Below, piece after piece: positions 4,807 to 57,771 of a stretch of DNA of 64,000 nt. Origin of the DNA: Polynucleobacter nymphae (lineage in GTDB: Bacteria > Pseudomonadota > Gammaproteobacteria > Burkholderiales > Burkholderiaceae); assembly GCF_018882155.1 (NCBI RefSeq), contig NZ_JACVPA010000001.1, positions 1,364,001 to 1,428,000 on the forward strand, written 5' to 3'. Below the pieces are notes generated by a model. It made no database searches, was not told where the DNA came from, and saw only the letters and a program-made list of their open reading frames with translations. Each line of letters starts with the position of its first letter. The first letter of the stretch is position 1. The position numbers and the translations under genes were made by a program.

Positions 4807-5120
4807 ACACCCCACATGATGGGCTCATGTTTGCCATTGGCCTGCTTCATGAGTTCTAGAAAAGGATAGGCTCGTTGTCCAAGGCGATCAGCCAGCTTAA
4901 CCTTTTCGCCACCATCTTTACCGCCCCCTTGAACTTTGGAGCGCTCTTCTAGATCTTTGAGGATGGCAGTTTCTAGAGTAGTAATGAGAGTAGGAAGATG
5001 CTCAACTGTCAAAATTCCGCGGGGCTCTAATGGGCGACCTAAAATACCAAAGATCCGCATCGTTAGATCAGCCAGCATAATGACATCTGGACCGGCTTTT
5101 GAGCGAAATTGATAGATCAT
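4803..5120 (-). CDS. DUF1840 domain-containing protein
   Basis: A 105-residue soluble protein whose N-terminus (M-I-Y-Q-F-R-S-K-A, then V-I-M-L-A, then L-G-R-P and R-G-I) fits the DUF1840 family of betaproteobacteria. No function is known for the family. The C-terminal half is charged and has a Gly-Gly-Lys run, with no catalytic motif I can name. It is divergent from argS over 35 bp. A TAAGCT hexamer ends exactly 6 nt before the ATG, part of the leaderless pattern in this window. Confidence 0.8.
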   Translation of the reverse strand: MIYQFRSKAGPDVIMLADLTMRIFGILGRPLEPRGILTVEHLPTLITTLETAILKDLEERSKVQGGGKDGGEKVKLADRLGQRAYPFLELMKQANGKHEPIMWGV

Positions 5121-5126
5121 TTTGAT

Positions 5127-5132
5127 AGCTTA
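5127..5132 (-). promoter_or_regulatory. -10-like hexamer, leaderless position, DUF1840 gene
   Basis: TAAGCT on the minus strand with 6 nt (ATCAAA) to the start codon at 5120. It matches TANNNT but is weaker than the others in this window. A start site 7 nt downstream of the hexamer would fall on the A of the ATG. Confidence 0.35.
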
Positions 5133-5155
5133 CCACCTGATAAACTCACTCTTCT

Positions 5156-6883
5156 ATGTTGTCGACCAATAAAAATCGTTTAATTGAGATGCTTGGCAGT
5201 GCCCTTGGAAGCCTTGCTCAAGAGCGTGGCTTAGAGAAGCCTTCTGCGCCCCGTTTGGAGCGTCCTAAGGCTGTTGATCATGGTGATGTCGCCTGTAATA
5301 TTGCACTTCAGTTATCCAAGGCTTGGAAGCTCAATCCTAGAGAGTTGGCTCAGGCCTTAGTTGAGCGTCTGCAAAAAGAGTCGGGTTATGACAAGCTCAT
5401 CGCCTCTTGTGAAATAGCGGGCCCTGGGTTCATTAACTTCCGCCTAAGTAATGCTGCTAAAACAGCGGTAGTCAATGAGGTTCTCACTGAAGGCTCTCAT
5501 TTTGGCGAGCTTGCGAAAGAGCAGGCTCCGGTTGCAAGCGCCATGATTGAGTTTGTTTCAGCAAATCCTACCGGCCCCTTGCATGTAGGTCACGGTAGGC
5601 AAGCGGCGCTTGGTGATGCCCTGGCAAATTTATTAGCCACCCAAGGAATCAAAGTACATCGTGAGTTTTATTACAACGATGCTGGTGTGCAAATTGCCAA
5701 TTTGGCTTTATCTGTTCAAGCCCGTTTACATGGCTTAAAGCCTGGCGAAGCAGCTTGGCCAGAGCAGGCTTATAACGGTGAATACATTGCTGAGATTGCG
5801 GCTGCTTTTAAGGCCTCTCCAGAATATCAAGATGATCTTGAGGCTATTCGGCAATTTGCAGTTGCTTATTTACGTCATGAGCAAGACATCGATTTAAAAA
5901 CCTTTGGCGTTCAATTCGATTGCTACTATTTAGAATCCTCTTTGTATACCGATGGCAGTGTTGCAAAAATTGTGAGTGATTTGCAAAGCATTAATAAGAC
6001 TTATGAATCTGAAGGTGCATTGTGGTTAAAAACGACAGATGATGGCGATGATAAAGATCGCGTGATGCGCAAGTCTGATGGGACCTTTACCTACTTCGTG
6101 CCTGATGTGGCGTATCACACTAGCAAGTGGAGTCGTGGTTTCCATAAAGTGATTAATGTTCAAGGTAGTGACCACCATGGCACGATAGCCCGTGTCCGCT
6201 CTGGCTTGCAGGGTGTAGCACAAAAGCGTGGCTGGGATATTCCGAAGACTTATCCAGATTATGTTTTGCATAAGATGGTGACCGTCATGCGCAATGGTGA
6301 AGAGGTCAAAATTTCTAAGCGCGCTGGTTCATACGTCACCGTACGTGATTTGGTTGAGTGGTCTGGCGGTGTGACTCCTGAGATGAGCCCAGCAGAAAGA
6401 GAATTGGCACTACAACGTGGTCGAGATGCAGTGCGCTTTTTCTTGATCTCACGCAAAGCAGATACTGAATTCGTTTTCGATATCGATTTAGCTCTACAGC
6501 AAAATGATGAAAACCCAGTGTTCTATGTTCAGTATGCGCATGCGCGCATTAACTCAATCTTGCAGCAATGGGGTGGACAAATTTCTGACTTACCCTCTGC
6601 CGACTTGTCTTTATTACAGAGTAAAGCTTCAGATCATTTATTGCGCCGTTTAGCTGAGTATCCCGAGGTACTGACAGATGCTGCGGCCGAGTTGGCTCCC
6701 CATGCTCTCGCTTTCTATTTGCGAGATCTTGCAGGGGATTTTCATACCTTCTATAACGCAGACCGCGTGCTGGTGGATGATCAAAACCTTAAGGTAGCTC
6801 GCTTAGCGCTACTATTGGCTACGCGCCAAGTGCTGCAAAATGGTTTAAAAGTATTAGGGGTATCTGCGCCCGCTAAGATGTAG
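5156..6883 (+). CDS. argS: Arginyl-tRNA synthetase
   Basis: Class I synthetase that charges tRNA-Arg with arginine. The HIGH signature appears as H143-V-G-H146, directly after the S-A-N-P-T-G-P motif typical of ArgRS. The KMSKS equivalent is V-K-I-S-K-R-A-G-S in the middle of the protein, and the C-terminal DALR anticodon-binding part has Y-A-H-A-R. At 575 residues it is full length. A TAAACT lies 9 nt before the ATG, so the leader would be at most a few nucleotides. No SD is visible. Followed by the SPOR-domain gene after 38 bp. Confidence 0.97.
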   Translation: MLSTNKNRLIEMLGSALGSLAQERGLEKPSAPRLERPKAVDHGDVACNIALQLSKAWKLNPRELAQALVERLQKESGYDKLIASCEIAGPGFINFRLSNAAKTAVVNEVLTEGSHFGELAKEQAPVASAMIEFVSANPTGPLHVGHGRQAALGDALANLLATQGIKVHREFYYNDAGVQIANLALSVQARLHGLKPGEAAWPEQAYNGEYIAEIAAAFKASPEYQDDLEAIRQFAVAYLRHEQDIDLKTFGVQFDCYYLESSLYTDGSVAKIVSDLQSINKTYESEGALWLKTTDDGDDKDRVMRKSDGTFTYFVPDVAYHTSKWSRGFHKVINVQGSDHHGTIARVRSGLQGVAQKRGWDIPKTYPDYVLHKMVTVMRNGEEVKISKRAGSYVTVRDLVEWSGGVTPEMSPAERELALQRGRDAVRFFLISRKADTEFVFDIDLALQQNDENPVFYVQYAHARINSILQQWGGQISDLPSADLSLLQSKASDHLLRRLAEYPEVLTDAAAELAPHALAFYLRDLAGDFHTFYNADRVLVDDQNLKVARLALLLATRQVLQNGLKVLGVSAPAKM

Positions 6884-6921
6884 TAGCAGGGTATGCAGTG
6901 AAAAGGTAAGATGAGGCAATC

Positions 6922-56899: not shown

Positions 56900-56905
56900 A
56901 AGCAC

Positions 56906-56911
56906 ATTCTA
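56906..56911 (-). promoter_or_regulatory. -10 hexamer, leaderless position, TPR-LolB gene
   Basis: TAGAAT on the minus strand, GTGCTT (6 nt), then the ATG at 56899. This supports ATG 56899 over the GTG at 56905. Confidence 0.5.
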
Positions 56912-56922
56912 ATCTGCGAATC

Positions 56923-56928
56923 TACAAT
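56923..56928 (+). promoter_or_regulatory. -10 hexamer, leaderless position, mutM
   Basis: TACAAT, CCATTT (6 nt), then the ATG at 56935. It shares a 35-bp gap with the opposite TPR-LolB hexamer. Confidence 0.5.
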
Positions 56929-56934
56929 CCATTT

Positions 56935-57771
56935 ATGCCAGAGCTTCCAGAAGTAGAAGTCACCAGACTAGGAATTGCCCCCCATCTCGAGGGGCGGAAG
57001 GTCAGCGCCGTCAAAGTTCTGGATGGGCGCTTGCGGTGGCCTGTGCCTAGTAATTTGCCAAAGATTCTGCCAGGCCAAAAGGTGCGCTCTATAGCAAGGC
57101 GTGGGAAGTACTTATTACTTGAAATGGATACGGGTCACCTGCTCATCCATTTGGGCATGACTGGAACTTTACGGGTCTTGCCAAGCACTGATTCTTTGAA
57201 GCCACATGATCGAGTTACCTTTGAATTTGGCAAGCTCAGCTTACGATTACATGACCCCAGAAAATTTGGCGCAGTGTTATGGCACGCCAATACGAAGGGC
57301 CCACTTGAGAAAAATACGCTTTTGCAAAAGTTAGGAGTTGAGCCTTTTTCGGCTGAGTTCGCAGCTCAACTTGGCGCCGATATTCTTTACAAAGCCTCAC
57401 GTAAGCGCAGCGTAGCGGTCAAGCAATTTTTACTAGCTGGTCAGGCGGTTGTAGGTGTCGGTAATATTTATTGCTCAGAAAGTTTATTTGAGGCGGGCAT
57501 TCATCCTGCAAAAGCTGCTGGTAAGTTAAGCAAACCGCAATGTGCTCGCTTGGCAAATGCAGTCAGACTTATTCTGAAGAAGGCGATAGCTGCTGGCGGT
57601 AGTAGCTTAAAAGATTTTGTAAATAGTGAAGGTGATCCCGGCCACTTCATGGTGCAAACCAAGGTTTATGACCGCAAAGGCTTGCCGTGTAAGGTTTGCA
57701 AAGCGCCAATTGTACAAATTGTCCAGGGTCAGCGCTCCACCTATTTCTGTCCCCAATGTCAAAAACGCTAA
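56935..57771 (+). CDS. mutM: Formamidopyrimidine-DNA glycosylase
   Basis: Removes 8-oxoguanine and formamidopyrimidines. The N-terminal catalytic P-E-L-P-E-V-E gives the Pro2 nucleophile and Glu3. R-R-G-K-Y-L-L-L-E carries the Lys contact, and the helix-2-turn-helix V-G-V-G-N-I-Y-C-S-E and the C-terminal zinc finger (C-K-V-C and C-P-Q-C) are intact in 278 residues. It overlaps mutY by 16 bp, which places both arms of the oxidised-guanine repair system on one transcript. Confidence 0.97.
   Translation: MPELPEVEVTRLGIAPHLEGRKVSAVKVLDGRLRWPVPSNLPKILPGQKVRSIARRGKYLLLEMDTGHLLIHLGMTGTLRVLPSTDSLKPHDRVTFEFGKLSLRLHDPRKFGAVLWHANTKGPLEKNTLLQKLGVEPFSAEFAAQLGADILYKASRKRSVAVKQFLLAGQAVVGVGNIYCSESLFEAGIHPAKAAGKLSKPQCARLANAVRLILKKAIAAGGSSLKDFVNSEGDPGHFMVQTKVYDRKGLPCKVCKAPIVQIVQGQRSTYFCPQCQKR

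What the first reader, a model, noticed from the sequence alone, without database searches (positions are those of the whole stretch)
5120..56935. Twelve operon-head genes carry TANNNT exactly 6 nt before the ATG: predicted leaderless mRNAs
Seen directly upstream of DUF1840, rfaE2, birA, the vanZ-like gene, ferredoxin, gshA, gpmA, rhodanese (second ATG), the BioC-like gene, pth, TPR-LolB and mutM. The hexamers are TATAAT twice, TACAAT three times, TAGAAT three times, plus TATACT, TAAACT, TAATAT and TAAGCT. The spacing never varies. TANNNT at a fixed place is expected about once in 64 by chance at equal base use; I found 12 among roughly 28 unit-first genes scanned by eye. A start 7 nt past a -10 falls on the A of the ATG. 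SD sites are lacking there, while the porin, glnK, amtB, hpf, ctaD and coaD have them. Such promoter-ATG fusion is known from Deinococcus-Thermus and Actinobacteria; I do not know it as a described feature of this lineage. -35 elements look poor.
Basis: partly seen in the sequence, partly recalled or inferred. Interest (0 to 1): 0.8.

Follow-up and report, generated by a model that had tools for sequence, protein, structure and literature searches.

The report
Promoter -10 boxes fused to ATGs
In a bacterium that is likely a freshwater Polynucleobacter, a set of genes carries a promoter-like -10 box exactly six bases before the ATG, and at most of those checked the box and its spacing are kept across much of the genus, so their messages are predicted to begin on the start codon itself, with no leader and so no ribosome-binding site ahead of it.

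Summary
All 12 sites are real, and the pattern holds beyond the window. With starts called without the motif, TAN(AA/AC/TA)T lies exactly 6 nt before 49 of 616 unit-first genes sampled from three Polynucleobacter genomes; offsets 20-79 give a mean of 3.4 and a maximum of 11. Four genomes from other families of the order give 7 of 369, E. coli 0 of 94. In five other Polynucleobacter genomes 46 of 54 orthologs of 11 site genes keep TANNNT in place, against 8 of 281 for the other 63 genes. Hexamer identity is 0.88-0.94, spacer identity 0.58-0.70. SD words: 2 of 48 versus 199 of 549. Best reading: sigma70-type -10 elements placed so that transcription likely starts on the A of the ATG (leaderless mRNAs). 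Corrections: spacing is not strictly invariant (shoulder at 7-8 nt); the window is a hot spot (10/74 versus 22/752 genes); the ferredoxin gene is no clear unit head; leaderless genes are already reported for beta-proteobacteria, with mapped 5' ends in Burkholderia and Cupriavidus. Most striking: interlocked -10 boxes (ATTCTATAAT) in the 22-bp gpmA/rhodanese gap, kept in 25 of 25 readable loci. No transcript 5' ends were available.

The parts
5127..5132 (-). -10 hexamer TAAGCT of DUF1840 gene, ATG at 5120
   Evidence: TANNNT at 6 in 4 of 5 orthologs; DUF1840 PF08895
13067..13072 (+). -10 hexamer TAATAT of rfaE2/hldE domain II gene, ATG at 13079
   Evidence: kept in 3 of 5 orthologs; TIGR02199
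15189..15194 (-). -10 hexamer TACAAT of birA (biotin protein ligase), ATG at 15182; divergent with 15220
   Evidence: (5 of 5); PF03099, PF02237
15208..15213 (+). -10 hexamer TAGAAT of VanZ-like gene, ATG at 15220; divergent with 15182
   Evidence: (4 of 5), 55: both hexamers at 6 in 29 of 30 and 15 of 20 genus loci; PF04892
16319..16324 (+). -10 hexamer TATAAT of 2Fe-2S ferredoxin-like gene, ATG at 16331 (16 nt after a same-strand gene)
   Evidence: no Pfam match, below-cutoff matches NF041612/NF041613; conservation not counted, because my gene caller put the start at 16361
24685..24690 (+). -10 hexamer TACAAT of gshA, ATG at 24697
   Evidence: 30 of the 30 closest loci held and 12 of 13 more divergent genus loci; PF08886
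24644..24676 (+). terminator-like hairpin and T tract just upstream of the gshA -10, over its -35 region
32331..32336 (-). -10 hexamer TAGAAT of gpmA, ATG at 32324; overlaps the opposite-strand hexamer by 2 bp
   Evidence: 25 of 26 Polynucleobacter-like loci, the 26th cut off; TIGR01258
32335..32340 (+). -10 hexamer TATAAT of rhodanese gene, second ATG at 32347
   Evidence: PF00581
35868..35873 (+). -10 hexamer TATACT of BioC-like methyltransferase gene, ATG at 35880
   Evidence: 4 of 5 orthologs; PF08241, below-cutoff BioC
52531..52536 (-). -10 hexamer TAAACT of pth, ATG at 52524
   Evidence: 3 of 5 orthologs with TANNNT at 6; PF01195
56906..56911 (-). -10 hexamer TAGAAT of TPR-LolB gene, ATG at 56899; divergent with mutM
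   Evidence: both hexamers at 6 in 33 of 37 loci (36 genomes); below-cutoff LolB and TPR matches
56923..56928 (+). -10 hexamer TACAAT of mutM, ATG at 56935
   Evidence: TIGR00577 fpg from residue 1; 0 of 20 genomes of other families

Best explanation
Each of these 12 genes has a hexamer matching the bacterial -10 promoter consensus TANNNT exactly six bases before its ATG, so RNA polymerase likely starts transcription on the A of the start codon and the gene is predicted to be read from a leaderless mRNA. Shown: the hexamer, the TANAAT consensus of such sites, the fixed distance, its conservation with that distance, the near absence of SD words, the preference for ATG and for unit-first (above all divergent) genes. 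Inferred: that the housekeeping (sigma70-type) RNA polymerase uses the hexamer, that +1 is the A of the ATG, and that an intact ribosome starts on the 5'-terminal AUG as described for leaderless mRNAs elsewhere (recalled). A spacing of 6 puts position +1, counted from a -12..-7 hexamer, exactly on the A. A spacing of 7-9, seen in a minority, would give leaders of about 1-3 nt. In divergent pairs each hexamer serves its own gene; at gpmA/rhodanese the two hexamers interlock, so one 22-bp gap likely acts as a bidirectional promoter for two leaderless mRNAs.
For: Exact-6 peak in three Polynucleobacter genomes sampled apart, also without the window or its orthologous stretches: 17/176, 7/56 and 10/52 divergent genes against 4.3, 1.4 and 1.3 expected. 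Hexamers at spacing 6 have A at positions 4 and 5 (0.65, 0.72) where controls have 0.32 and 0.28, the -10 consensus. Orthologs keep TANNNT at 6 in 46 of 54 against 8 of 281, and the hexamer is better kept than the spacer (only the 50 of 54 pairs with ATG at the aligned place). At birA/vanZ the distance between the two hexamers is 13, 22 or 2 bp in different species while each hexamer stays 6 nt from its own ATG. gshA keeps TACAAT or TAGAAT at 6 in 12 of 13 of the more distant genus members, where much of the DNA further upstream has diverged, and in this genome a terminator-like hairpin with its T tract ends 20 nt before its ATG, leaving no room for an ordinary leader downstream of it. SD words 2/48 against 199/549. 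ATG 72/74 against 674/783, P = 0.003. mutM's start cannot be elsewhere if its Pro-2 is the catalytic N-terminus of Fpg (recalled), and TIGR00577 matches from residue 1. Burkholderia and Cupriavidus, of the same order (recalled), have measured leaderless mRNAs, in B. cenocepacia with a TA-rich motif directly upstream.
Against: No transcript 5' end was seen. Spacings of 5, 7, 8 and 9 also occur; by reading, birA has 7 nt in L324, vanZ 8 nt in L330-L332 and gshA 5 nt in L352. Not every ortholog keeps it: rfaE2 3 of 5, pth 3 of 5; mutM lacks it in 3 of the 7 deep-genus loci read; no vanZ/birA pair in L314 and L336. The loose motif is only weakly in excess at unit-first genes behind a same-strand neighbour (7/165 against 3.7). 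Genes with a same-strand neighbour 25 nt or less upstream also show a small excess: 10/314 for TANNNT against 3.6, 4 of the 10 being the TAA stop of the preceding gene, and 6/314 for the strict motif against 0.38; internal promoters could explain it, but so could a translational role. My -35 test found no excess even for hexamers at leadered distances, so it says little. SD depletion is partly forced, because the hexamer sits where an SD would.
Confidence: 0.84

Rival explanations
1. The hexamer is a real -10 element, but the main start site lies a few bases to either side, so the mRNAs carry 1-5 nt leaders or lose the AUG; true leaderless starts are a minority.
For: A shoulder at spacings 7-9 (9, 13, 5 against a mean of 3.4) and vanZ at apparent spacing 8 in L330-L332. 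Start-site choice by RNA polymerase varies by a base or two (recalled).
Against: The peak at 6 is 49 against 2 at 5 and 9 at 7. A promoter with a tolerant leader would not hold one spacing through the indels seen at birA/vanZ.
Confidence: 0.1
2. The TA-rich hexamer is a translation element (for example a site for ribosomal protein S1, or a way to avoid structure near the start codon) in ordinary leadered mRNAs.
For: Small excess also at genes closely behind a same-strand gene, and a weak one for the loose motif at other same-strand heads. AT-rich signals upstream of starts are discussed in this sense for other groups (Zheng 2011, passage read).
Against: Enrichment is mainly at divergent unit heads. 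The consensus is that of a -10 box. Divergent gaps of 22-37 bp and the terminator-like hairpin ahead of gshA leave little room for a separate promoter and leader.
Confidence: 0.04
3. The paired hexamers at divergent junctions are halves of an operator for a regulator, not promoters.
For: Three compact pairs have inverted hexamers.
Against: The distance between the halves ranges from -2 to 22 bp, no operator geometry; in the G000 sample 18 of 22 divergent pairs with a site have it on one side only.
Confidence: 0.01
4. Chance plus selection by eye in an AT-leaning window.
For: The window is denser than the rest, and the finding was picked because of it.
Against: The same peak at 6 occurs outside the window and in two other species, also without window orthologs, and is absent from E. 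coli by the same script.
Confidence: 0.01

Closest known systems
Leaderless (TA-led) bacterial genes of Zheng et al. 2011, PMC3160421
   Same: TANNNT about 12 bp before the start; read as a -10 box giving leaderless mRNA; reported in 9 of 71 beta-proteobacterial genomes at 2.8-10.6% of genes (passages).
   Different: No held paper has both 'leaderless' and 'Polynucleobacter' (supplements not read), so the main text does not name the genus. Conservation of single sites across a genus and two-sided gaps do not appear in the passages read.
Leaderless mRNAs of Cupriavidus metallidurans CH34 (PMC7563307) and Burkholderia cenocepacia J2315 (PMC4603805)
   Same: Same order (recalled); measured leaderless transcripts: 4.67% of primary TSSs in Cupriavidus; in B. 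cenocepacia 72 genes exactly at the start and 42 within 10 nt (24 of these transcripts are tRNAs), with a TA-rich motif directly upstream (passages).
   Different: There enriched for regulators (both) and for replication/repair (Cupriavidus); none of the 12 window genes was matched to a regulator family. gpmA of 54 named loci outside the Polynucleobacter group lacks the site.
-10-motif next to ORFs in Deinococcus-Thermus, PMC12340547
   Same: TANNNT adjacent to the ORF acts as the -10 region; spacing matters; leaderless (abstract and passages).
   Different: About 30% of ORFs there; here 32 of 826 genes by the strict motif.
Bidirectional promoters of enteric bacteria (Warman, Grainger et al.; PMC10268837, PMC12825309)
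   Same: Near-symmetrical, interlocked -10 elements on opposite strands; TSS distances of 18, 10 and 23 bp are common (passages). The gpmA/rhodanese ATGs are 23 bp apart.
   Different: 'Leaderless' does not occur in the main text of PMC12825309. Here both predicted start sites are start codons. birA/vanZ and mutM/LolB, 38 and 36 bp apart, lie outside the 7-25 bp definition.
Mycobacterium tuberculosis leaderless transcriptome, PMC3898074
   Same: TANNNT -10 without a -35 consensus; closely set divergent promoters are common; a divergent pair (Rv1129c/prpD) is leaderless on both sides (passages and figure legend).
   Different: Other phylum; the gap size of that pair was not read.

Membership tests
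Leaderless gene with ATG-fused -10 | -10-like hexamer at about -12 relative to the start codon, at fixed spacing, beyond chance | tested here: met
   49/616 unit-first genes against a mean of 3.4; 12 of 12 sites in the window
Leaderless gene with ATG-fused -10 | No Shine-Dalgarno sequence | tested here: met
   2/48 against 199/549, while the genome holds the usual anti-SD tail pattern once (that it is the 16S end was not checked)
Leaderless gene with ATG-fused -10 | AUG rather than other start codons | tested here: met
   72/74 against 674/783, P = 0.003
Leaderless gene with ATG-fused -10 | First gene of a transcription unit | tested here: met
   Clear at divergent genes; at same-strand heads 7/165 against 3.7 (loose) or 0.85 (strict); weak at close same-strand genes. 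Ferredoxin at 16331 is an exception
Leaderless gene with ATG-fused -10 | Transcript 5' end on the start codon | not testable with these tools
   No transcript data in the tools; no Polynucleobacter TSS map found
Leaderless gene with ATG-fused -10 | Translation without leader | not testable with these tools
   Needs a reporter or ribosome profiling
Bidirectional promoter (TSSs 7-25 bp apart on opposite strands) | Interlocked -10 elements with predicted TSSs 7-25 bp apart | tested here: met
   gpmA/rhodanese only: ATTCTATAAT, ATGs 23 bp apart, in 25 of 26 loci; the other two compact pairs fail it (36, 38 bp)
Bidirectional promoter (TSSs 7-25 bp apart on opposite strands) | Both transcripts observed | not testable with these tools
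   No transcript data
Deinococcus-Thermus type of usage | About 30% of ORFs carry the motif | tested here: not met
   32 of 826 genes by the strict motif

The most novel reading that the evidence does not exclude
Polynucleobacter has reduced part of its gene control to a two-codon switch: interlocked -10 boxes fill the 22 bp between the gpmA and rhodanese ATGs, so one RNA polymerase at a time chooses which of two leaderless mRNAs to start. Neither gene has a leader, a -35 box or a ribosome-binding site, and promoter, start site and start codon form one inseparable unit, fixed across the genus.
Probability: 0.5. Interest if true: 0.65.

Novelty: new member of a known kind. Interest (0 to 1): 0.45.

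Why it matters
It gives a widespread freshwater genus (recalled) a defined, conserved set of predicted leaderless genes, among them gpmA, gshA, mutM and birA. For the two checked outside the genus, gpmA and mutM, relatives lack the site, which allows a clean test of when and why leaders are lost. It also fixes start codons for annotation, and the 22-bp gpmA/rhodanese gap is a very compact natural object for studying promoter choice and leaderless translation in a Gram-negative.

Tried and rejected
Operator palindrome: rejected because the distance between hexamers varies from -2 to 22 bp. Translation-only element: disfavoured by head enrichment and -10 consensus. -35 search (TTGACA, 4 or more of 6, spacer 15-19): 19/63 sites against 82/303 non-site divergent genes, no signal; extended TG 4/63 against 22/303; the positive control (strict motif at leadered distances, 29/103) was equally flat, so the test is weak. 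Compact divergent gaps as a genome-wide rule: genes with gaps of 15-45 bp carry the site in 10/20 (G000), 5/6 (G016) and 4/10 (G032), but outside the window and its orthologous stretches only 3/10, 0/0 and 1/4, and two-sided compact pairs among the 98 sampled G000 pairs are only the three of this window, with one further two-sided pair 250 bp apart. So I do not claim a general law. My gene caller misplaces some starts (it put the ferredoxin start at 16361), which dilutes the counts. Rows dropped: one search counts only ortholog pairs with ATG at the aligned place (50 of 54 and 194 of 281); genes too close to a stretch end or with an open 5' end are left out of the scans. An early note says 14 of 20 for the second birA/vanZ set; the output gives 15 of 20, used here.
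Full report
What was checked. All 12 are there with the stated letters. In 10 of 12 the ATG is the only possible start after the last in-frame stop; rhodanese has ATGATG and TPR-LolB a GTG 6 nt upstream. The genes are DUF1840, rfaE2, birA, VanZ-like, 2Fe-2S ferredoxin-like, gshA, gpmA, rhodanese, a BioC-like methyltransferase, pth, TPR-LolB and mutM (the names ferredoxin, LolB and BioC rest on matches below the curated cut-offs).

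Is it more than chance? I wrote a gene caller that picks starts by coding score and start codon only, without the motif. Over 864 kb of the genome (828 genes) TANNNT at spacing 6 was found in 26 of 196 genes with a divergent neighbour, 7 of 165 with a same-strand neighbour more than 80 nt away, 2 of 144 at 26-80 nt, and 10 of 314 at 25 nt or less. Backgrounds were 4.7, 3.7, 2.8 and 3.5. Outside the window the divergent class gives 17 of 176 against 4.3 (P = 2e-6). So the loose motif is clearly in excess only at divergent genes; of the 10 close same-strand cases, 4 are only the TAA stop of the preceding gene. Choosing among all candidate ATGs instead of one called start gives the same peak, 28 of 196 against 6.5.

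The hexamer is a -10 box by composition. At spacing 6, positions 4 and 5 are A in 0.65 and 0.72 of sites, against 0.32 and 0.28 in TANNNT words elsewhere upstream (74 sites, 282 controls). With the stricter TAN(AA/AC/TA)T, unit-first genes of three Polynucleobacter genomes give 25/361, 12/137 and 12/118 at spacing 6 (backgrounds 2.1, 0.8 and 0.6); four genomes of other families in the order give 3/83, 2/96, 1/84 and 1/106 (backgrounds 0.35, 0.13, 0.40, 0.85, so perhaps a weak signal in the first two); E. coli K-12 gives 0/94. In G000 the strict motif is in excess at divergent genes (18/196 against 1.2) and at same-strand heads (7/165 against 0.85). Pooled, spacing 6 has 49 of 616, spacing 7 has 9, spacing 8 has 13 and spacing 9 has 5, against a mean of 3.4 and a maximum of 11 at offsets 20-79.

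Conservation. Comparing the window with the matching 80 kb of five other Polynucleobacter genomes, 11 site genes keep TANNNT at 6 in 46 of 54 orthologs; the other 63 genes show it in 8 of 281. Identity is 0.88-0.94 in the hexamer but 0.58-0.70 in the six spacer bases (50 ortholog pairs with ATG at the aligned place; other genes, 194 such pairs, 0.53-0.60 at these positions). At mutM/LolB both hexamers and both spacings are kept in 33 of 37 loci from 36 genomes, with six-base spacers free to vary; the misses are one locus whose match lacks the first 39 residues and three of the most distant members. At gpmA/rhodanese the ten bases ATTATAGAAT (gpmA strand) are unchanged in 25 of 26 loci, the 26th being cut off by its contig end. 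At birA/vanZ both sides are kept in 29 of 30 and 15 of 20 loci, while the distance between the hexamers is 13, 22 or 2 bp; by reading, the exceptions show spacings of 7 (L324) or 8 (L330-L332), or no pair (L314, L336). gshA keeps it in 30 of the 30 closest loci held and 12 of 13 more distant genus members. The loci held are the best or chosen ones, not all genomes of the genus: 101 were searched for gshA and for vanZ.

How old is it? gpmA has no TANNNT at 6 in any of 54 named loci outside the Polynucleobacter group, and has it in the 25 readable loci of that group, which include one MAG named only Betaproteobacteria bacterium. mutM lacks it in 20 of 20 genomes of other families (4 of the 24 such genomes were not fetched). 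So these two sites arose in, or were kept only by, the Polynucleobacter lineage, although leaderless genes as such occur in other members of the order.

Mechanism. A hexamer at -12..-7 of the ATG puts +1 on the A. Ribosome-binding words are nearly missing at these genes (2 of 48) but present at 199 of 549 other heads, and the genome holds the usual anti-SD pattern. ATG is used in 72 of 74. At gshA a terminator-like hairpin with T tract ends at 24676, 20 nt before the ATG; a start upstream of that would have to read through it. No -35 consensus was found, but the test was weak. Promoter use, the exact 5' end and leaderless translation remain inferred.

Two-sided gaps. Three divergent gaps of 22, 35 and 37 bp in the window hold a -10 box for each gene and little room for more. 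Only gpmA/rhodanese meets the published spacing for bidirectional promoters (predicted starts 23 bp apart; 23 bp is named as a common distance). Among the 98 divergent pairs of the G000 sample the compact two-sided pairs are these three alone. M. tuberculosis offers a precedent for a divergent pair that is leaderless on both sides.

The density is a hot spot (10/74 genes against 22/752, P = 2e-4). The spacing is not unique. One gene is not a clear unit head. And leaderless genes are not new to beta-proteobacteria or to this order. My searches for leaderless mRNA or a TSS map in Polynucleobacter found none; supplements were not read, and most subscription papers are not in the library.

Verdict. 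A real, conserved and well-defined set of -10 boxes fused to start codons, predicted to make leaderless mRNAs in Polynucleobacter: a new member of a known kind, with one unusually compact two-sided example.

Noticed in passing
61184(-) and 5156(+): Two further window genes have a -10-like hexamer close to the ATG at other spacings: TATAAT at 8 nt (PtsN-like) and TAAACT at 9 nt (argS, divergent to DUF1840).
   Followed up: partly
35862-35877: The BioC-like gene's -10 box lies between direct repeats, GCTGAG TATA CTGAGC, with CTGAG TATA CTGAG also in the distant genome G032: possible regulator site.
   Followed up: no
24614-24676: Two terminator-like hairpins in tandem between amtB and gshA; in some relatives the second stem changes on both sides (L256, L263).
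   Followed up: partly
whole window: The window is several times richer in strict sites than the rest of the sample (10/74 against 22/752); the reason is unknown.
   Followed up: no
L164, L168, L169, L171 upstream of gpmA: Acidovorax, Curvibacter and one Burkholderiales MAG have near-palindromic -10 words (such as ATTTTAGAAT) further upstream of gpmA, as if a two-sided promoter existed with a leader for gpmA.
   Followed up: partly
L163: A MAG named only Betaproteobacteria bacterium (gpmA 71% identical to the query) shares the gpmA/rhodanese 10-mer.
   Followed up: no
G023:C1:1399002-1400293: gshA appears split into two overlapping pieces, one with a stop, in one genus member, perhaps a frameshift or an assembly error.
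   Followed up: no
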